From positions 36,464 to 100,463 of the forward strand of contig NZ_LPVV01000007.1 in NCBI RefSeq assembly GCF_002362255.1: a DNA stretch of 64,000 bases. The letters are read 5' to 3'. Below the pieces are notes generated by a model. That model saw only the letters and a program-made list of their open reading frames with translations, had not been told where the DNA came from and made no database searches. A program made the position numbers and the translations under genes. Source of the DNA: Microbacterium sp. SZ1 (GTDB lineage Bacteria > Actinomycetota > Actinomycetes > Actinomycetales > Microbacteriaceae). Within the stretch, counting starts at the first letter, position 1, and the number at the start of each line of letters is the position of its first letter. Shown here piece after piece: positions 40,793 through 51,659 of this stretch.

Positions 40793-41122
40793 ATGGCGAC
40801 ACTCATGTACGGTCCGAGCGATGTGCCGATCCACATCGAGGATCGCGCTCTTGCTCACCTGAAGATCGTCATCGCGACGAAGCTCCGCCGCAACGAGTCC
40901 TTCACGCTCTCGTGGAAGCATGCGGAGGGTGAGCCGGGTGGGCGGTCGACGATCTGGATCCACCCGTCCATTCCGCTGCGGTTCGTGTTCGACGAGCCCG
41001 AGGCGCCGCAGATCAGCATGAAGTGGATCGAGCAGCTCGTCCACTCGGCGAACACGAGCGGAGGCATCGCCCTCGTCGACGAGGTGCTGAGCCCCGCCGA
41101 GATCGAGTCCGCGGACGCCTAG
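40793..41122 (+). CDS. DUF7882-family small protein (paralogue 1)
   Basis: The 109-residue soluble protein contains 'LAHLKIVIATKLRRNESFTL' and 'IWIHPSIPLRF', shared almost word for word with the gene at 51366. The family is typical of Microbacteriaceae and has no known function. A TAGGAT -10-like box ends 7 bases before the ATG, so the transcript is probably leaderless. Its TAG stop shares a CTAG tetranucleotide with the convergent DJ-1/PfpI gene. Confidence 0.8.
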   Translation: MATLMYGPSDVPIHIEDRALAHLKIVIATKLRRNESFTLSWKHAEGEPGGRSTIWIHPSIPLRFVFDEPEAPQISMKWIEQLVHSANTSGGIALVDEVLSPAEIESADA

Positions 41123-43726: not shown

Positions 43727-44518
43727 TCACGGCTGGACGGGGGGAAGCATCCGGTGCGACAGTGCGCGCACCGAGCGCAGGCGCTGACCGTGGCGGAGGA
43801 AGAGCGCCATCCCGGCCAGCCGACGACGCAGACCCCACCAGGTGACGAGACTGAGCGACTCGGTGACGATCGCGCCGCTCATCTTCGACTCGCCGTGCAC
43901 GCGCTCGACGAACGTGATCGGCACCTCGACGACGCGGAGTCCCCGCTCGAGCGCACGCCACAGCAGGTCGACCTGGAAGCAGTAGCCCTGGGATGCGACG
44001 TCGAAGAGGTCGATCCGGCGCAGGGCGGCCGCGCTGAACACGCGGTAGCCGCCCGTGGAGTCGCGGACGTCGATCCCCAGGGCGAGGCGCGCGTACAGGT
44101 TGCCACCGCGGCTGAGGATCTCACGGTGCCGCGACCAGTTGACGACCTTTCCGCCCGGCACCCAGCGCGACCCCAGCACCAGATCGTGGTCGATGAGCTG
44201 CTCCAGCAGTCGGGGCAGCTCCTCCGGGCGGTGCGAGCCGTCGGCATCCATCTCGACCAGCGCCCAGTAGTCGCGCTCCAATCCCCAGGCGAACCCCGCG
44301 AGGTAGGCGCCGCCCAGCCCGTCCTTCTCGGTGCGGTGCAGCACGGAGACCGCGGGGTGCCGCTCGGCCAGGGCGTCGGCGAGCTCGCCGGTCCCGTCGG
44401 GCGACGCGTCGTCGACGATCAGAATGTCGGCGTCGGCCGCTGCGAGCACCCGGTCGACGATCGACTCGATGTTCTCGATCTCGTTGTAGGTGGGGATGAT
44501 GACGAGCGTCTCGTTCAT
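43727..44518 (-). CDS. Polyprenol-phosphate mannose synthase-like glycosyltransferase
   Basis: The 263-residue GT2 enzyme matches Ppm1/DPM1: 'VIIPTYNEIENI' at the N-terminus, 'DILIVDDASPDGTGELAD', the DxD-type 'VEMDADGSHRPEEL' and 'STGGYRVFSA'. It would transfer mannose from GDP-mannose to polyprenyl phosphate at the inner membrane face. The lipid-linked mannose would serve GT39-type transferases such as the one at 47241. It lacks C-terminal membrane helices. It is the last gene of the surface-glycan operon, 18 bases after the sortase gene. Confidence 0.9.
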   Translation of the reverse strand: MNETLVIIPTYNEIENIESIVDRVLAAADADILIVDDASPDGTGELADALAERHPAVSVLHRTEKDGLGGAYLAGFAWGLERDYWALVEMDADGSHRPEELPRLLEQLIDHDLVLGSRWVPGGKVVNWSRHREILSRGGNLYARLALGIDVRDSTGGYRVFSAAALRRIDLFDVASQGYCFQVDLLWRALERGLRVVEVPITFVERVHGESKMSGAIVTESLSLVTWWGLRRRLAGMALFLRHGQRLRSVRALSHRMLPPVQP

Positions 44519-44536
44519 GGCGGTCCTTTCGAAGGG

Positions 44537-45157
44537 TCAGCTCTGCAGTTCGGCGAAGACGATGAGGTTGTCGAGATAGTGCCCCGTCGAGGGGTCGAAG
44601 ACGCCCCCGCAGGTGATGAGCCGCAGTTCCGGGGTCGGCACGTTGCTGTACACGGAGGAGGTCGGGAATTCGGCCTTGGCGGACTGGATGCTGTCGCTCA
44701 CCGCGAACACGCGCTCCGATCCGTCCGACAGGGTGACGACGATCTCGTCGCCGACGGCGAGCGAGCCGAGACCCGCGAAGACGGCAGGCGCCGACGGAGA
44801 GTCGACATGACCGGCGATGATCGCCGGTCCCACCGCACCGGGGACGACGCCGCCCGAGTACCACCCGGCGAGGTCGTAGTCGACGGGGGCGGTGAGGCGA
44901 CCGGTGCCGTCGAGCGTCAGGTCCTCCAGCGTCGAATCCACGCCGAGCGCGGGGATCGAGACGCGCGTCGGCACGGCGTCCCGTGCCGGGGGCGTGGGCT
45001 CGGCAGGATCCTGCATCCCGCCGGCGGAGAACCCGCTCTGGGCGGTGGCCGGCGGGGCGGGGGATGCCGGGCCGGTAGCGCCGCACGCCGCGAGGCCCAG
45101 CGATACGGCGAGCACGCCGATCGCCGCGAGGGTGCGCATCCCACCGGCCCCGCGCAT
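44537..45157 (-). CDS. Class F sortase with lipoprotein-type N-terminus
   Basis: Sortases are surface transpeptidases. The 206-residue protein has the class F core with catalytic His117 ('IIAGHVDS') and Cys183 ('LITCGG'). Two features are unusual. The N-terminus is a lipobox (GLAAC, Cys25) rather than a plain membrane anchor. The segment after the Cys ('FDPSTGHYLDNLIVFAEL') contains no arginine, although an arginine normally completes the triad. The ATG at 45157 shares a base with the GH8 stop (TGATG); an internal ATG six codons later is possible. Substrate is unknown; the DUF4397 protein or the glycan pathway next to it are candidates. Confidence 0.88.
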   Translation of the reverse strand: MRGAGGMRTLAAIGVLAVSLGLAACGATGPASPAPPATAQSGFSAGGMQDPAEPTPPARDAVPTRVSIPALGVDSTLEDLTLDGTGRLTAPVDYDLAGWYSGGVVPGAVGPAIIAGHVDSPSAPAVFAGLGSLAVGDEIVVTLSDGSERVFAVSDSIQSAKAEFPTSSVYSNVPTPELRLITCGGVFDPSTGHYLDNLIVFAELQS

Positions 45158-46314
45158 CAGACCTCTCCCGTCCCGCAGCCGCCGAGGGCCTCGTCGGTGA
45201 GCATCGCGGTCGACAGCATGACCCAGGACGCTCCGTAGTAGGTCGGATACCGCACGCTGAACTGCGCGGCGCGCTCGAGGTCGGAGGAGGCCGCCTCGGC
45301 GTCGCCGCTCGCGGAGGCGGATGCTGCGCGCGCGGTGTAGGCGAAGGCCGACTCATCGGACGACAGGGAGCCGCCCCCGAGATCCAGGCGCGACGCCAGC
45401 TCGTCCTCCCGATCGAGGGTGGCGAGGGGACGAGCGGCGAGAGCCACGTCAGCGGGATCGCAGGATTCCGCGTACCGCAGCAGGAGCCGCGGCGCGTCGA
45501 ACCCGTACTGCACGGGATCGCCTCCGCCGCGCGGCCCCGGCATGGGCTCGACGAGTCCGTCGGCGTGCACCTGGGCCCAATCGGGCGGCAGATCAGTGGC
45601 ATCGAGGATCGTGCCGGTGACCTGAGCGCTGCCCGCCTGCAGTTCGGCCCAGCGCGGATCGCCCGTCGCCGCACCGAGGACCTGGAACGCCACGGGCGAC
45701 GCATAGCTGGGGTTGTAGGCGTACGGCTCGCGGTCGGCCGCCCACAACCCGGGCAGCAGGATGCGTCCCTGCGCGGTCTGCACCGTGAGACGGTCGGCGA
45801 TCACGGTCGCGAGCTCCACGCCCTCCGCGCGCAGGTCCTCGCGCCCGAAGCGGTCCCCCGCCAGCACGAGAGCGCGGGCGGCGTCGAGGTCGGCATCGGT
45901 CGCCGGTTCGTCGTCGACGACCTTCCCGTCGTCCCACCGCCAGGCCATGAGCCCGTCGGGGCGCAGCAGCTCGGCGCGCGTCCAGTCCCAGACCTCGTCG
46001 AAGCGCTGCTCGTCGTCGGCGATCAGGGCCGCGAAGAGTCCGTACGCCTGGCCTTCGCTGACGGTGTCGCCGCCTTCGTCGCGCCGGACGACGCGTCCGT
46101 CCTCGACCCACTCGTCGAGGAACGAGGTCGCGAGGTCGGCGGCGACGAGATCAGGTGCCCGCGTCTCCTCCGGAGGCAGGGGCGACGAGGTGGCGGCGGG
46201 CGACGCGTCGGGCGGGCCGGTGTCGGCGGTGTTCAGGCCGACGGCGACCGCCGCGGTCCCCGCCGTCACCACCACGGCGCCCGCGGCGATCGCGATCAGA
46301 GCGGGGCGGCGCAT
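45157..46314 (-). CDS. GH8 family glycoside hydrolase, membrane-anchored or secreted
   Basis: The 385-residue protein has an N-terminal hydrophobic helix (about 5-27), a Pro/Ser linker and a GH8 (alpha/alpha)6 domain. The general acid is Glu87 ('SEGQAYGL'), the substrate-binding aspartates are in 'ATDADLDAA' (140-142), and 'NPSYASP' and 'QYGFDAPRLLLR' are diagnostic. GH8 enzymes cut beta-1,4-glucans, chitosan or xylans; BcsZ in cellulose synthase operons is a member. Next to a processive GT2 it probably trims the polymer made by this locus. It is coupled to the genes on both sides by 1-nt overlaps. Confidence 0.88.
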   Translation of the reverse strand: MRRPALIAIAAGAVVVTAGTAAVAVGLNTADTGPPDASPAATSSPLPPEETRAPDLVAADLATSFLDEWVEDGRVVRRDEGGDTVSEGQAYGLFAALIADDEQRFDEVWDWTRAELLRPDGLMAWRWDDGKVVDDEPATDADLDAARALVLAGDRFGREDLRAEGVELATVIADRLTVQTAQGRILLPGLWAADREPYAYNPSYASPVAFQVLGAATGDPRWAELQAGSAQVTGTILDATDLPPDWAQVHADGLVEPMPGPRGGGDPVQYGFDAPRLLLRYAESCDPADVALAARPLATLDREDELASRLDLGGGSLSSDESAFAYTARAASASASGDAEAASSDLERAAQFSVRYPTYYGASWVMLSTAMLTDEALGGCGTGEV

Positions 46315-47162
46315 CAGAGCGCCTCCCGCACCTGCTTCGCCGGAGCCGTTCCGTCGGCCTCGGCGTGGGCGAGGTAGCCGCCGCCCGTGTCGACCCCGCC
46401 GTCCGGCACGTCTCCCACGGAGGCGCTGTCGAGGATCGGCAGGATCGTGAGTCCGCCGCTGGATGTGTCGAGCACGAACAGCGTCGTGACGCTGCCCGCG
46501 GCGACCGACACGTCCGCGGTGTCCTGCACGCCCTCGCCGGTGAGGTCGAGGGTCCAGTCCCCGGCGGGGATCTCGGCGTACCCGGTGGCCGATCCGGCCT
46601 TCGCATCCTTCGCGATCGGGTCGCCCTGCGCGGTCGTCACGTCGACCTCCGGCGTGATCGTGGACGCCTGGATGAGTCGGATGCGGGCGGAGCCGGCCGC
46701 GGGCTGCGACAGGTCGTCGTCGAACGCCCGCACCTGCAGGTCATCGGTCGGTCCGTAGGCTGCGACCGTCGTCGCGGTGCCGGCGTCGACGGTGACCGTC
46801 TCCGAGATCACGGGGACGTCCGACCCCGACGAACCGGCCGGCACCATGCTGACCGTGTACGACCCGGCCGGGAGCTCCTGGTACGTGGAGACGTCGCCGT
46901 AGCCGACGCCGTCGAGCTCGAAGAGCGTCGAACCGCCGCTCACGGCCGCGACACGCACGTCGACCGACTTGGTGTCTGGCGAGAGGTGGCCGAGGCGCAA
47001 CCACCCGGCCGAGGCGTCGACCGCCGCCGGAGCAGCCGCCGGACGCGGGTCGACGGAGGCGGTCTGCGCCGCGGCGGGCAGCGGGGCGGCGAGGCCGACG
47101 AGCAGGGTCGCCGCCCCCCAGGCCAGGCCGGTCTTCAAGCGCGGGAATCGTGAATTCGTCAT
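46314..47162 (-). CDS. Secreted DUF4397 domain protein
   Basis: The 282-residue protein has a cleavable signal peptide (to about residue 33, AAA-Q). Two DUF4397 beta-sandwich units follow: 'AGWLRLGHLSPDTKSVDVRV' starts the first and 'SARIRLIQASTITPEVDV' the second. The tail contains 'DGGVDTGGGYLAH', similar to the Gly/Thr-rich ends of DUF4397 proteins found next to class F sortases. It is a candidate surface scaffold or sortase partner; that role is inferred. A good AAGGAG ribosome-binding site precedes the ATG, and the stop overlaps the GH8 start. Confidence 0.85.
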   Translation of the reverse strand: MTNSRFPRLKTGLAWGAATLLVGLAAPLPAAAQTASVDPRPAAAPAAVDASAGWLRLGHLSPDTKSVDVRVAAVSGGSTLFELDGVGYGDVSTYQELPAGSYTVSMVPAGSSGSDVPVISETVTVDAGTATTVAAYGPTDDLQVRAFDDDLSQPAAGSARIRLIQASTITPEVDVTTAQGDPIAKDAKAGSATGYAEIPAGDWTLDLTGEGVQDTADVSVAAGSVTTLFVLDTSSGGLTILPILDSASVGDVPDGGVDTGGGYLAHAEADGTAPAKQVREAL

Positions 47163-47240
47163 GATGTGCTCCTTCTCGATGGGTCGTGCGTTCCGTGTGG
47201 CTGTCTGTCGGTCGGTCGGTCTGTCGGTTCGGGAGTGCTG

Positions 47241-49253
47241 TCAGGGCAGCAGGGGCCGCAGCGAGATCGGGTACCGGAGCACCACGGTGTCGCCCGAGAC
47301 GGCCACCTCGGCCGGTTCGTAGGCGCCGGTGAGCGAGTCGAGGAGCGCGCGCCCCTCCGGGGTGAGCCGGTCGCCGTCGGCGACGGGCGCTCCGCTGATC
47401 GATGAGATCGCGAGCTGACGGAACGACTCGTCGCCCTCGCCCGACACCACGGGGAATCCCGAGACGGTGACCGATCCCGAACCGGCGAGCGCGGCGAGCA
47501 CGGCGATGATGCGCTCATCGACCTGTCCGGCGATCAGCCGGTCGCGGTCCGCATCCTCCAGCGTGATCTCGGGGTTGGTCGCGAGCTCGGCACCCAGACG
47601 CGCGCGCTGCGAGACCGCATCATCGAGCGAGATCGCCGCCTGCTCCGCGCCGTCGATCGTCACGCGGCGCACCTCGACCGCCTGCGGTCCCGAGCCGAAC
47701 GAGGCCACGACGACGGAGTTGTCGATCGCCTGCTGCACCTGCGGGAACGCTCCGGGGAACGTGCGCATGGAATCCGTCGTGACGACGTAGTCGGCGTCGC
47801 GCCATCCGTTGGGCGAGTCCGCCTGGACGGCGGGATCGGTGTCGAGCTTGTAGTACCAGATGACGTTCTCGCGATCCCAGCCGGCGCGCACCAGGTCGAC
47901 CCACATGGCGTCGTCGACGATGATGCGCTGATCGGTGGTGGCGTTCTGCTCGAGCCACTGCTCGGCACCGCGGAGGGGTGCGTCGAGGTCGGCGAGCACG
48001 AAGCCGCGCAGCTGCGTCGCCCAGAGCGGCACCGCCACGATCGCCCCCACGGCGGCGACGGCCACGAAGCCGGTCGCGAGACCGCGGTGCGACGCCGACC
48101 GCCGACGGATGCGGGCCACCGCGCTGTCGGCTGCGCCGGCGATGAGGAGGGCGCCGAAGGGGATCAGCATGATGACGTACGGCACCGGGAGATACCCGCC
48201 GGGCCGGAACATGAAGGCGGTCATGGCCAGCACGAGCACCGCGTACGGGCGCAGGCGCGGCAGGAGCAGCGCGAACACCGCGGCGACGAGGCTCAGCACG
48301 ATGAACACCGGATCCAGCTGCCACCACATGCCGAGAGTGCGGTTGATGAGCGAGTCCGGGTCGGCTATCGATCCGCTGCCCTCGCGGGAGGCGAGCTGGA
48401 AGGTGATGCCCTCCATGAGGCTGACCCGATCCGTGCCACTGAAGAGCTCCCCCTTCACGGCGGCGAGCAGCAGATAGCTGCCGCCGATCAGGACCAGGAT
48501 GCTGGCGGCCACCGAGAGCGTGTACCGGCGGGTCTCGCGGCGGGCGCTGCGCAGCATCACCCAGGCGAGGAACGGCAGGGCGAGCAGGAACGTCTCCTTC
48601 GTCAGCACCGCGATGCCGAACGCGAAGGCGGATCCGGCGAACGCGGCGAGCTGGCCTCGTCGGTTCGTCGCCAGGAAGAAGGCGAGGAGCAGCCAGGGCA
48701 CGGCGACGTTGTCGAGGTAGACCGTGCGGTGGAACTGCAGTGCGAGGGGCGACAGGGCGAACACGAGGCCCGTGGCCGCTGCGGCGACCCGCGACATGCC
48801 GAGCCGGCGGGCGAGCGCCCACAGCAGCACGACCGAGACGAGTGCGGCCACCAGCACGGCCTCGCGCCCGGCGAGGACGGCGACGTCCCAGCGCTCGAAC
48901 GCGCCGGTGAGCTGCGTGTAGCCGGCGATCTGCAACCAGCCGAGCGGCGGGTGGTCGTACCAGTACGTGTAGTGCGCGAGCTCGCCGAGATGGGTCACGG
49001 CCCACGCCTGCGCGGTGTACGTGCCCTCGTCGTCGATGCGCTGGGGGGAGCCGCCGACGTTGAGGAAGTTGACCACGGCGCTGACGAGCAGCACCGGGAT
49101 GAGCCAGACGAGATCGCGTGCGTGCGTGCGGAGCCAGAGCGACACGCGTCCGGGGGTCCTCGGCGTCGTGTCGGAGGGGCGGATGCCGGCGCCCGGGGCG
49201 GAGCCGGTCGTGTCCCGCCCGAGATCGGCGGGCTTCTCGAGTGTCGTGCTCAT
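47241..49253 (-). CDS. GT39-family membrane glycosyltransferase
   Basis: The 670-residue protein has ten or more membrane helices, the acidic catalytic motif Asp74-Asp75-Glu76 ('RIDDEGTYTAQAW') in the first external loop and 'YDHPPLGWLQ', as in PMT/ArnT-type enzymes. A C-terminal extracytoplasmic domain of about 230 residues follows. Such enzymes transfer a sugar from a polyprenyl-phosphate donor to a protein or lipid outside the membrane; the Ppm1-like enzyme at the operon end could supply the donor. The start overlaps the GT2 stop by 4 nt. Confidence 0.88.
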   Translation of the reverse strand: MSTTLEKPADLGRDTTGSAPGAGIRPSDTTPRTPGRVSLWLRTHARDLVWLIPVLLVSAVVNFLNVGGSPQRIDDEGTYTAQAWAVTHLGELAHYTYWYDHPPLGWLQIAGYTQLTGAFERWDVAVLAGREAVLVAALVSVVLLWALARRLGMSRVAAAATGLVFALSPLALQFHRTVYLDNVAVPWLLLAFFLATNRRGQLAAFAGSAFAFGIAVLTKETFLLALPFLAWVMLRSARRETRRYTLSVAASILVLIGGSYLLLAAVKGELFSGTDRVSLMEGITFQLASREGSGSIADPDSLINRTLGMWWQLDPVFIVLSLVAAVFALLLPRLRPYAVLVLAMTAFMFRPGGYLPVPYVIMLIPFGALLIAGAADSAVARIRRRSASHRGLATGFVAVAAVGAIVAVPLWATQLRGFVLADLDAPLRGAEQWLEQNATTDQRIIVDDAMWVDLVRAGWDRENVIWYYKLDTDPAVQADSPNGWRDADYVVTTDSMRTFPGAFPQVQQAIDNSVVVASFGSGPQAVEVRRVTIDGAEQAAISLDDAVSQRARLGAELATNPEITLEDADRDRLIAGQVDERIIAVLAALAGSGSVTVSGFPVVSGEGDESFRQLAISSISGAPVADGDRLTPEGRALLDSLTGAYEPAEVAVSGDTVVLRYPISLRPLLP

Positions 49254-50707
49254 GCGGCGACCTCCTCACGGATCGGAGCGGACGCGACCGTGGCCGGCTC
49301 GCGATGCGCGCCGCTGTGCGCGGTCTTCTCCCACCCGCGCTCGCCGCGGAGTTCGCGGTAGACGGCGCGGATGGCTGCGCCCGCGAGCAGCACCTGGAAC
49401 GGGATCGTGCCCAGGACGAGGCGGACGTAGTCGCGGATGCGCACCTTCTCGCCGTACAGCCGGCCGAACTCGTTGAGGCCCGCGATCTCGACCGCGACCG
49501 TCACGAGCGTCGGGGCGAGGGGGATGAAGGTGAGCAGCGCGACGACGGTCGGGACCTTGACTACCAGGATCAGGAAGAGCGACAGCGGGATGAGCAGACC
49601 GGTCGCGGCCTGCAGGAACGGCATCGCGAGCATGTAGCGCGCGAAGAGCCGCTGCCCGCGCGTCGGGAGGGCCCGCCACTCGCCCTTGCGCAGCACCTGG
49701 AGGAAGCCCTGGTTCCATCGGGTGCGCTGCTTGTAGAACGACGGCAGCGTACCGGGCGTCTCCTCCCTGGTGACGTACTCGGGGCTGTACGCCACGACGA
49801 CCTTCTCGCCCTGGCTCGAGAGCCGCACGCCGAGCTCGCAGTCCTCGGCGAGGCACTCCGCATCCCACCCGCCGTTGCGCTCGAGCGCGTCGCGCTTCAC
49901 GAACACCGTGTTGCCGCCGAGTGGGATGAACTTCGCCCCGGCGTGGAAGTGCAGGCGGGAGCGGAACCAGAAGTAGTACTCGAGCACGTTGCGGAGCGAC
50001 CACCACGACGAGCGGAAGTTCATCAGCTGCACTCCGCCCTGCACGACGGTGGCGCCGGTCTCGGTGAACCGGGAGTCGATGTGGCGCAGCAGTTCCGGAT
50101 GCACCTCGTCCTCGGCGTCGAACACGCCGACGATCGAGCCGCCCGCGTACGACAGGGCGCGGTTCAGCGCCTTCGGCTTGTTCTTCGGCACGCTGTCATC
50201 CACCACGACCTCGATGAGGTCGGGGTGGCGCGCGGCCGCCGCGCGCACGACCGCCGTCGTGCCGGGGTCGTCGTCGCCGACGATCGCGATGATCTGCACG
50301 TCGGGGTGCGTCTGCGCGGCCAGGGCGTCGAGGGTCTGCCCCATCACCTCCTCCTCGTGCCTGCCCGGCACGAGAAGGGTGAAGGTGTGCTGCGCGGGGC
50401 GCGGTTCGCGCGAGAACGCCGTGCTGTCGTAGGTGCTCTTCGAGCGCCACGCGTACAGCATCCACCACAGCGTCGTCACCGCGACCGCGGTGAGGGCGAG
50501 AGCCACGGCGACCAGCCCGACGTGCCCGGCGAAGGCGACCCAGTCGACACCGGATGCGCTCTGCGCCGTCTCGACGAGCCCGGGGTCGAGCACCTCTCGA
50601 TTGGGTACGCCGGGTGCCGGAGCCTGCTCGGGTTCGGGGGTCAGCAGGGGGCCGGGAGCGGGATCGCTTTCGAAGGGTCGGGAGAGGGCGTGCGCGAGGA
50701 GTGTCAT
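49250..50707 (-). CDS. Processive GT2 glycosyltransferase (cellulose/hyaluronan synthase-like)
   Basis: The 485-residue inner-membrane enzyme has one helix near residues 60-85, a GT-A domain and about four C-terminal helices. The processive D,D,D,QxxRW signature is complete: Asp145-147 ('GDDDP'), Asp197/Asp200 ('FDAED'), Glu288-Asp289 ('AEDC') and Gln327-Trp331 ('QRTRW'). It should polymerise and extrude a beta-linked polysaccharide from a nucleotide sugar. No PilZ domain or BcsB partner is present. The ATG at 50707 overlaps the GtrA stop. The polymer is unknown. Confidence 0.88.
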   Translation of the reverse strand: MTLLAHALSRPFESDPAPGPLLTPEPEQAPAPGVPNREVLDPGLVETAQSASGVDWVAFAGHVGLVAVALALTAVAVTTLWWMLYAWRSKSTYDSTAFSREPRPAQHTFTLLVPGRHEEEVMGQTLDALAAQTHPDVQIIAIVGDDDPGTTAVVRAAAARHPDLIEVVVDDSVPKNKPKALNRALSYAGGSIVGVFDAEDEVHPELLRHIDSRFTETGATVVQGGVQLMNFRSSWWSLRNVLEYYFWFRSRLHFHAGAKFIPLGGNTVFVKRDALERNGGWDAECLAEDCELGVRLSSQGEKVVVAYSPEYVTREETPGTLPSFYKQRTRWNQGFLQVLRKGEWRALPTRGQRLFARYMLAMPFLQAATGLLIPLSLFLILVVKVPTVVALLTFIPLAPTLVTVAVEIAGLNEFGRLYGEKVRIRDYVRLVLGTIPFQVLLAGAAIRAVYRELRGERGWEKTAHSGAHREPATVASAPIREEVAA

Positions 50708-51180
50708 GATGTCGCCTCCTGAGGCGTCCGGAAGACCAGGAATCGGTAGGTGAGGTAGCGGAACACGGTGCCCAGGGCGAGACCCACCACGTTCCCGGCG
50801 ATGTTGTCGGCGAGGTGACTGGTGAACCCGAGGACGTAGTGCGAGACGAACAGGCATCCGGCGGCGATCAGCAGCCCTCCTCCGTTGGCGAGGAGGAAGA
50901 GCAGGAGCTCCTTCGCGACCGCAGGGCGCCGCGTGCTGCGGAAGGTCAGGTAGCGATGCCCGAGCCAGGCGACTCCCGTGGCGACCGAGACGGAGATGAC
51001 CTTGGCCCAGATCACCTGCTCCGACATCACGGTGGCGCGAAGCAGGTTGTACCCGCCGACATCTACGACGAAGGCGATGAGACCGACGCCCCCGAACGCG
51101 GCGAGCTGCGGCACGGCTCGCCTCACGGCGGAGGCGAGTCGGGACAGCCGAAGGAATGGCGCGGAGGGGGAGAGCGTCAT
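50704..51180 (-). CDS. GtrA-family membrane protein
   Basis: The 158-residue protein has four hydrophobic helices and the GtrA strings 'LAAFGGVGLIAFVVDVGGYN' and 'TGVAWLGHRYLTFRS'. GtrA-like proteins are thought to flip polyprenyl-linked sugars across the membrane. It is the first gene of the surface-glycan operon. The ATG at 51180 is preferred because the domain begins shortly after it. A longer GTG-started form from 51273 would add a low-quality 31-residue N-terminus. Confidence 0.85.
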   Translation of the reverse strand: MTLSPSAPFLRLSRLASAVRRAVPQLAAFGGVGLIAFVVDVGGYNLLRATVMSEQVIWAKVISVSVATGVAWLGHRYLTFRSTRRPAVAKELLLFLLANGGGLLIAAGCLFVSHYVLGFTSHLADNIAGNVVGLALGTVFRYLTYRFLVFRTPQEATS

Positions 51181-51365
51181 ACTGCGCGTTCGGAGGCTCT
51201 CGCGGTGCGGATTGGTGCGCGTCGGCGGCACCCCGGCGTGTCTGCACGGAAACGAGCAGGAAGTTTTTTTCACGCACCACGGGCCCGGGGAACGCGCCCG
51301 TTGCCCGTATATCAGCGCCGTCCCCGAGCGCGATCGGACGGGTGGTGGCGCGGTACTGTTCGATC

Positions 51366-51659
51366 ATGGGAAAGCTCGAGTACAACAGTTCGCGTCCGGC
51401 GATCGAGATCGACGACGATCTCCTCGTCCATGTGAAGATCGTCATCGCGACCAAGCTGCGGCGTCAGGAGAGCTTCATGATGACCTGGCCCGACGGGTCC
51501 CACGGGGTCGGCGCGATGTCGGCGTGGATCCACCCGAGCATCCCGATGGTGCTGGAGTTCGACGAGAGCCCCGCGCCCAAGGTCGACCCGCGCCGCGTCG
51601 AACGGATGATGGCGCGGCTCAATGCGCGCGGCGAGCTGGTCCTCGACGAGCTCGAGTGA
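51366..51659 (+). CDS. DUF7882-family small protein (paralogue 2)
   Basis: The 97-residue protein shares 'VHVKIVIATKLRRQESFMMT' and 'AWIHPSIPMVLEFDE' with the gene at 40793. Function is unknown. A TACTGT -10-like box ends 6 bases before the ATG, so this gene too looks leaderless. It lies between the surface-glycan operon and the second glycan-utilisation locus, convergent with the LacI gene. Confidence 0.8.
   Translation: MGKLEYNSSRPAIEIDDDLLVHVKIVIATKLRRQESFMMTWPDGSHGVGAMSAWIHPSIPMVLEFDESPAPKVDPRRVERMMARLNARGELVLDELE

What the first reader, a model, noticed from the sequence alone, without database searches (positions are those of the whole stretch)
43727..51180. Coupled seven-gene surface-glycan locus: GtrA, processive GT2, GT39, DUF4397, GH8, class F sortase, Ppm1-like
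All seven genes lie on one strand, five of the six junctions overlapping by 1-4 nt or being 18 nt apart. Together they supply a lipid-mannose donor (Ppm1-like), a flippase (GtrA), a polymerising synthase with complete D,D,D,QxxRW, an extracytoplasmic GT39 transferase, a trimming hydrolase, a secreted DUF4397 protein and a sortase. Known bcs operons share GT2 plus GH8 but have BcsB and PilZ, which are absent here. The set reads as a system that makes a beta-linked polysaccharide and attaches it, or the DUF4397 protein, at the surface. That joint role is inferred.
Basis: partly seen in the sequence, partly recalled or inferred. Interest (0 to 1): 0.7.

Follow-up and report, generated by a model that had tools for sequence, protein, structure and literature searches.

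The report
Sortase wired into sugar-polymer operon
Microbacterium and its relatives carry a conserved gene cluster (seven genes here) that joins a predicted surface sugar-polymer synthase and trimming enzyme to a sortase, an enzyme that likely fastens the neighbouring secreted protein at the cell surface; in some relatives the trimming enzyme and the sortase are encoded as one protein.

Summary
In detail: seven minus-strand genes, 43727-51180, junctions as described. The cluster is real: in all 74 of 80 named loci whose contigs reach far enough, GT2-GT39-DUF4397-GH8-class F sortase stay together, and 10 of 10 close GT2 orthologues in 120 family genomes lie in it. It merges two modules that also occur apart: a glycan module and a DUF4397-sortase pair. 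GH8 and sortase are one ORF in 20 of 80 loci. The DUF4397 protein ends in PDGGVDTGGG, the only GG[VI]xTGGG coded in its genome. That motif also ends unrelated tail-anchored proteins just upstream of class F sortases across Actinomycetota (38 of 54, against 0 of 90 non-adjacent tails), and NCBIfam already has a 'GVDTG sorting domain' for such tails. So DUF4397 is very likely the sortase's client. Caveat: in the window's clade the membrane segment after the motif is missing, and that model does not match. Product sugar, acceptor and all activities are inferred. New variant of a known kind.

The parts
50704..51180 (-). GtrA-like small membrane protein (158 aa); first gene, accessory
   Evidence: PF04138 74.5 bits; found in 52 of 80 loci by HMM; one GtrA-GT2 fusion protein, P0235
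49250..50707 (-). GT2 membrane synthase (485 aa): D147, D197/D200, E288-D289, QRTRW 327-331; predicted processive-type architecture
47241..49253 (-). GT39/PMT_2 family transferase (670 aa), likely extracytoplasmic sugar transfer
   Evidence: PF13231 42.8 bits; beside GT2 in 80 of 80 loci; in one ORF with GH8 in L329
46314..47162 (-). Secreted DUF4397 protein (282 aa), two beta-sandwich domains, predicted sortase client
   Evidence: PF14344 125.9 bits; AF2 model, mean pLDDT 79.9; 45 of 51 family DUF4397 genes (window included) have a class F sortase within 3 kb downstream on the same strand
46377..46406 (-). Codons of the tail motif P253-D-G-G-V-D-T-G-G-G262, predicted class F sortase recognition site
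   Evidence: Column entropy 0-0.5 bits at P253, G255-V257 and T259-G262, against mostly about 3 bits at residues 266-282; only GG[VI]xTGGG coded in the genome
45157..46314 (-). GH8 hydrolase (385 aa) with N-terminal hydrophobic segment, BcsZ-like
   Evidence: PF01270 110.8 bits; BcsZ model 117.5 bits, below its cut-off of 299; E87 in 76 of 76 and D273 in 73 of 76 sequences
44537..45157 (-). Class F sortase (206 aa), H117, R179, C183; lipobox-like LAAC near the N-terminus
   Evidence: NF033748 167.9 bits, cut-off 166; H, R and C in 75 of 75; alignment
43727..44518 (-). Ppm1-like GT2 (263 aa), predicted polyprenyl-phosphate sugar synthase; accessory
   Evidence: PF00535 104.6 bits; no TM-like segment; found in 55 of 80 loci, two of these (L022, L055) by weak hits

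Best explanation
The cluster joins a predicted glycan synthase-and-trimming module (GT2, GT39, GH8, with GtrA and Ppm1 as accessories) to a class F sortase and its likely client, the DUF4397 protein, so that a membrane-made polymer and a sortase-processed protein would be delivered to the cell surface together. Shown by sequence: the genes, their conserved order, the separate existence of the two modules, the fusions of neighbours in relatives, and the shared tail motif. Inferred: Ppm1 makes a polyprenyl-phosphate sugar, GtrA helps it cross, GT39 spends it outside on the polymer (or on a protein); GT2 makes and extrudes the chain; GH8 cuts it at the membrane; the sortase cleaves DUF4397 after Thr259 in PDGGVDT-GGG and passes it to an amine of the envelope. 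The GH8-sortase fusion would put both steps at one place. In the window's clade the client has no membrane segment after the motif, so it would have to be held at the exit site by partners, perhaps by the lipoprotein-like sortase itself.
For: Order GT2-GT39-DUF4397-GH8-sortase in 74 of 80 GT2-selected loci; the 6 others stop at a contig end; L021, among the 74, has GH8 and sortase in broken frames. GT2 orthologues of 66% identity or more in 10 of 120 family genomes (window's included), all 10 with DUF4397 and class F sortase at the locus. GH8 and sortase in one ORF in 20 of 80 loci, both over Pfam cut-offs in the 4 checked. GT39 and GH8 in one ORF in L329, a 43% GT2 relative with GtrA and a Ppm1-like gene but no DUF4397 match. 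DUF4397 tails: 57 of 62 with a tail signal have the sortase adjacent, 4 of 24 without (86 of 90 rows kept, Fisher p 2.3e-11). Matrix from 25 operon DUF4397 motifs: 38 of 54 unrelated upstream tails pass, 0 of 90 non-adjacent tails. NF058571 'GVDTG sorting domain' matches 10 of 10 upstream proteins that I picked from 55, at E 0.01 or better, 4 over cut-off, and 7 of 8 membrane-tailed operon DUF4397 proteins at E below 0.05, 3 over cut-off. The genome has one such motif, one class F and one class E sortase. The motif sits in a low-confidence tail of the model.
Against: The window's DUF4397, like 48 of the 77 in the named loci, has no hydrophobic segment after the motif, and NF058571 does not match it, so a classical sorting signal is absent. 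16 of 54 upstream tails fall below the matrix threshold and 25 of 80 class F loci showed no upstream tail gene. 21 of 41 phylum DUF4397 genes have no class F sortase nearby. About two dozen of the 80 test loci were those in which I first saw the pattern. No activity, substrate or acceptor was measured. GT2's best structural match is PcManGT, not a polymerase. GtrA and Ppm1 are dispensable to the cluster. The fusion is a single change on the GT2 tree, so it is one observation, not twenty.
Confidence: 0.6

Rival explanations
1. Protein glycosylation and display: GT2 is not a polymerase; Ppm1, GtrA and GT39 put sugars on the DUF4397 protein (or another surface protein), and the sortase displays it, with GH8 a passenger.
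For: GT39/PMT_2 is named after protein mannosyltransferases; PcManGT has the top Z for GT2, 28.4 over 337 residues.
Against: GH8 is kept in all 75 of 80 loci that reach that far and is in one ORF with the sortase (20 loci) or GT39 (one locus) in relatives; GT2 keeps QxxRW and matches BcsA and hyaluronan synthase over 372-378 residues. GtrA and Ppm1, useful for this reading, were both not found in 17 of 72 loci.
Confidence: 0.15
2. The tail motif is not a sortase site in the window's clade: DUF4397 is a freely secreted helper of the glycan machinery and the sortase is a relic or serves something else.
For: No membrane segment after the motif in 48 of 77 operon DUF4397 proteins and in the window; no NF058571 match.
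Against: Motif columns stay near-invariant in a low-confidence tail whose later columns vary freely; sortase H, R and C in 75 of 75; no other GG[VI]xTGGG is coded in the genome.
Confidence: 0.15
3. An ordinary bcs-like or PNAG-like exopolysaccharide operon in which the DUF4397-sortase pair is a neighbour without joint function.
For: GT2 plus GH8 recalls bcs; PgaC is among the closer curated families (78 bits). The DUF4397-sortase pair occurs without GT2 elsewhere.
Against: GH8 and sortase are one ORF in 20 of 80 loci; all 10 close GT2 orthologues in the 120 family genomes have the pair.
Confidence: 0.1

Closest known systems
NCBIfam NF058571 GVDTG sorting domain beside class F sortases (NF033748)
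   Same: Same tail motif next to the same sortase class; 7 of 8 membrane-tailed operon relatives match the model at E below 0.05, 3 over cut-off
   Different: The window protein lacks the hydrophobic part and is not matched; here the pair sits in a glycan operon and the sortase can be fused to GH8
Bacterial cellulose (bcs) operons, BcsA/BcsZ
   Same: GT2 of the membrane-synthase fold plus a GH8 close to BcsZ
   Different: GT2 scores 36 bits against the CelA cut-off of 699; no PilZ or BcsB match; GT39, DUF4397 and sortase added
PgaC/IcaA poly-beta-1,6-GlcNAc synthases
   Same: One of the nearer curated GT2 families (78 bits); some sources label relatives 'cellulose synthase/poly-beta-1,6-N-acetylglucosamine synthase-like'
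   Different: Far below the cut-off of 422; partner genes differ
Class F sortase neighbours AMIS_11010 and AMIS_36440 of Actinoplanes missouriensis (PMC13251363, passages read)
   Same: Signal peptide, TM and basic tail next to srtF1 and srtF4, without a known pentapeptide; the authors suggest they may be substrates
   Different: Whether they are DUF4397 or GVDTG proteins was not checked; no phenotypic change was seen in the quadruple srtF deletion there
AlgF of the alginate O-acetylation complex (role from recall)

Membership tests
Class F sortase | NF033748 over its curated cut-off | tested here: met
   167.9 bits, cut-off 166
Class F sortase | Catalytic His and Cys | tested here: met
   H117 and C183 in 75 of 75 operon sortases, window included
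Class F sortase | Catalytic Arg of the sortase triad | tested here: inconclusive
   Mostly no Arg at the usual place after Cys; Arg at Cys-4 is invariant in 105 of 105 class F sequences; its role is untested
GVDTG sorting-domain protein (NF058571) | GG[VI]xTG motif near the C-terminus | tested here: met
   PDGGVDTGGG, residues 253-262
GVDTG sorting-domain protein (NF058571) | Match to the model, including hydrophobic segment and basic tail | tested here: not met
   No match at E 1 for the window protein; no TM-like segment in the tail. So not filed as a member
LPXTG cell-wall protein | LPXTG or LAXTG pentapeptide | tested here: not met
   Absent from the DUF4397 sequence (read)
bcs cellulose operon | GT2 is a CelA/BcsA equivalog | tested here: not met
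   36.1 bits, cut-off 699.1
bcs cellulose operon | PilZ domain and BcsB subunit | tested here: not met
   No match among 7 cluster proteins and 11 flanking ORFs
bcs cellulose operon | GH8 endoglucanase | tested here: met
   PF01270 110.8 bits; below the BcsZ equivalog cut-off, 117.5 against 299
pga/ica PNAG operon | GT2 is a PgaC/IcaA equivalog | tested here: not met
   78.3 bits, cut-off 422.3
Processive GT2 polysaccharide synthase | D, DxD-type, ED and QxxRW motifs with membrane helices around the GT domain | tested here: met
   81 of 81; helices in the model
Processive GT2 polysaccharide synthase | Makes a polymer | not testable with these tools
   Needs an assay; the structure match does not separate it from PcManGT

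The most novel reading that the evidence does not exclude
The sortase joins the DUF4397 protein to the nascent or freshly cut polysaccharide (through an amine on the sugar or its lipid end) instead of to peptidoglycan, so that the locus builds a bacterial proteoglycan; GH8 makes the end, the sortase fused to it caps that end with protein, and this is why the client no longer needs a membrane anchor in the window's clade.
Probability: 0.12. Interest if true: 0.88.

Novelty: new variant of a known kind. Interest (0 to 1): 0.62.

Why it matters
Class F sortases are common in Actinomycetota (45 of 198 phylum genomes hold a listed match with E below 1e-20), yet a 2026 paper states that their physiological roles remain unknown (PMC13251363, passages). 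The cluster gives a concrete client, a concrete motif and a functional setting. A GH8-sortase fusion is a direct hint that a sortase works at the exit of a polysaccharide synthase; the literature searches listed under Tried and rejected showed no earlier report of one. It makes the class F question testable in soil bacteria with single-gene deletions.

Tried and rejected
A missing catalytic Arg as a special feature of this sortase: rejected, because class F sequences from other families also lack it and share an Arg at Cys-4. LPXTG-like tails: four DUF4397 proteins of a family without a clear class F sortase end in [ILM]PDTGG instead. DUF4397-sortase ORF in L220: one ORF holds both, with motif, TM and a second lipobox-like segment between them; it may be two genes run together in a fragmentary genome, so it is not counted as a fusion. 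Correlation of fusion and membrane tail: only one independent contrast on the tree, so no claim. Promoter and terminator scan: none found. L021 has GH8 and sortase in overlapping frames; described only. In the GH8 column count I picked neighbours of the ATDADL aspartates by mistake, so these are not cited; the aspartates align with solved GH8 enzymes. NF058571 gave no match in the window's genome nor in the control genomes, which by the tool's own warning shows no absence; the DNA pattern is used instead. GH8 genes across the family (PF01270) were asked twice and never answered. Families absent from the VIA-align lists are not taken as excluded. The background letter frequencies of the matrix were set by hand. 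Literature (listings only unless passages are named): DUF4397 with sortase 0 papers, DUF4397 with glycosyltransferase 1, on a chitinase, DUF4397 alone 3, sortase with cellulose synthase and Microbacteriaceae 0, sortase terms with GH8 11 papers, 10 listed, none on such a fusion by title, class F searches 12, 7 and 30 papers, 10 of the 30 listed, GVDTG 7, none on sortases by title, cellulose operons with GH8 in Actinobacteria 2, neither on this by title. The library is open-licence PMC only. Di Girolamo 2019 was not read; what is said of it comes from a passage of PMC13257024.
Full report
What is there. The seven genes lie on the minus strand at the stated coordinates, with junctions of -4, -4, +78, -1, -1 and +18 nt, and all seven family assignments pass Pfam cut-offs. 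The sortase passes the class F model narrowly (167.9 bits against 166). The DUF4397 protein has two copies of the domain, a hydrophobic signal-like start and no other TM-like segment; GH8 has one N-terminal segment; the sortase has a lipobox-like LAAC near its start. Lipobox-like starts were found in 18 of 54 unfused operon sortases by a simple pattern.

Conservation. The GT2 protein was used to fetch 80 named loci (best 80 of 472), from Microbacterium, Curtobacterium, Frigoribacterium, Plantibacter, Subtercola, Arthrobacter, Promicromonospora, Antribacter and others. GT39 is present in 80 of 80, DUF4397 in 77, GH8 in 75 and the sortase in 74; each of the six incomplete loci ends at a contig end at that point. 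One of the 74, L021, has GH8 and sortase in broken frames. GtrA was found in 52 and Ppm1 in 55. Where both flanks could be seen (72 loci), 45 have both, 17 neither, 9 Ppm1 only and 1 GtrA only. So the core is GT2-GT39-DUF4397-GH8-sortase, and the lipid-sugar genes are accessories. These loci were chosen by GT2 similarity. As a check without that choice, 120 genomes drawn from the same family were searched: GT2 at 66% identity or more occurs in 10 (the window's genome included), and all 10 have DUF4397 and a class F sortase at the locus.

Two modules. The DUF4397-sortase pair is wider than the operon. In the family sample 45 of 51 DUF4397 genes have a class F sortase within 3 kb downstream on the same strand; in 198 phylum genomes 20 of 41 do (the window's gene is in both counts); none has it upstream or on the other strand. 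Operon-type DUF4397-sortase pairs without GH8 in the fetched stretch, in genomes without a GT2 match at E 1e-60, include L188, L193, L194 and L196. Conversely, an eleventh family genome, with a 43% GT2 relative, has a Ppm1-like gene, GT2, GT39, GH8 and GtrA but no DUF4397 match and only a 22-bit class F match on another contig. The operon thus looks like a merger.

Fusions. GH8 and sortase are one ORF in 20 of 80 loci, in one Microbacterium clade and in Subtercola; four were checked and both domains pass Pfam cut-offs. E87 and D273 of GH8 and H, R and C of the sortase are kept in all 20. On the GT2 tree this is one change. In the 43% relative GT39 and GH8 are one ORF (its start is uncertain, and it is one genome). 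One database protein, P0235, fuses GtrA to GT2. So several neighbouring pairs are joined in some relative.

The tail motif. All 77 operon DUF4397 proteins of the named loci end in a variant of P-x-G-G-[VIT]-x-T-G (G-G is D-G in one and G-P in four). In an alignment of 49 relatives P253, T259, G260 and G262 are invariant and G255, G256, V257 and G261 nearly so, while columns 266-282 have 1.8 to 3.5 bits of entropy, mostly about 3. The AlphaFold2 model puts this stretch in a low-confidence tail after the last strand. This is what a linear recognition site looks like. A membrane segment follows the motif in 29 of 77 and is missing in 48 of 77 and in the window; the state changes at least three times on the tree while the motif stays.

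Is it a class F sortase signal? Test one: among 86 DUF4397 proteins of genomes not chosen by GT2 (90 rows; four dropped because the frame was wrong, held a stop or also held the sortase), 57 of 62 with a tail signal have the sortase adjacent and 4 of 24 without do (p 2.3e-11). The five exceptions are four [ILM]PDTGG tails in a family without a clear class F sortase and one Subtercola locus whose sortase is fused to GH8. The four opposite cases are two tandem genes of one locus, one GAVQTGGG tail and one borderline tail. Test two: 80 class F loci not next to DUF4397 were fetched (15 of 15 family, 65 of 97 listed phylum). In 55 of 80 a gene just upstream has a tail segment. A scoring matrix made only from 25 distinct operon DUF4397 motifs passes the 99% shuffle level in 38 of 54 distinct upstream tails and in 0 of 90 distinct tail-anchored ORFs that are not adjacent (p 2.3e-22). 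Most of the 16 that fail carry related but looser tails such as RVDAGSAGL or GSVKTGVGG; one looks spurious. Two cautions: about two dozen of these loci were those in which I first saw the pattern, and related genomes, several from one genus, are not independent, so the p-values are too small; the contrast itself is large. The clients are otherwise unrelated: CHRD, ice-binding, fasciclin and DUF11 domains. Test three: NCBIfam already holds NF058571, 'GVDTG sorting domain', which matches 10 of 10 upstream proteins that I picked from the 55, at E 0.01 or better, four over its cut-off, and 7 of 8 membrane-tailed operon DUF4397 proteins at E below 0.05, three over cut-off; it matches neither the eighth (L082), nor the tail-less L041, nor the window protein. 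The general motif is therefore not new; its use in this operon, without a membrane tail, appears to be. In the window's genome the coding pattern for GG[VI]xTGGG occurs once, in this gene, and the only other sortase found is class E.

How it most likely works. GT2 would make and export a polymer; GT39 would add a sugar from a lipid carrier (made by Ppm1 and moved by GtrA where present); GH8 would cut the polymer at the membrane; the sortase would process DUF4397 at Thr259 and attach it to an envelope amine at the same site. Only the gene content, order, fusions and motif are shown. The least explained point is the missing membrane segment in the window's clade.

Compared with the literature held here: class F roles are described as unknown, and two genes next to class F sortases in Actinoplanes were left aside because no known pentapeptide was found (PMC13251363, passages); class E uses LAXTG (PMC5148588, passages); the Cutibacterium class F enzyme is said to use LPXTG (PMC13257024, passage), so the class may use more than one motif. 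None of the searches listed in Tried and rejected turned up this operon or a GH8-sortase fusion.

Noticed in passing
L085-L114 and operon loci: Class F sortases share an invariant Arg four residues before the catalytic Cys (LRxxTC, 105 of 105) and an invariant Asn after it, while the usual Arg place after Cys varies; the catalytic Arg may sit elsewhere in this class.
   Followed up: partly
L254, L276, L286, L287, L296, L310: Class F sortase neighbours with the same tail include ice-binding, CHRD, DUF11 and fasciclin domain proteins: a broad client set.
   Followed up: partly
L205-L208: DUF4397 proteins of another actinobacterial family end in [ILM]PDTGG plus TM and basic tail, so DUF4397 seems to be a recurrent sortase client with lineage-specific motifs.
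   Followed up: partly
L010 and L011: The Lacisediminihabitans changchengi record carries two copies of the operon on two scaffolds with identical GT2.
   Followed up: no
L013: A record titled Planococcus sp. APC 4015 holds the operon with a Microbacterium-like GT2 (79%) and Ppm1 before the sortase; the name is probably wrong.
   Followed up: no
window 51156-51659 + and 40793-41122 +: Two DUF7882 genes lie in the window, one divergent from the operon start and one about 2.6 kb beyond its end.
   Followed up: no
L220: One ORF holds DUF4397 with the motif and TM, then a lipobox-like segment and a class F sortase.
   Followed up: partly
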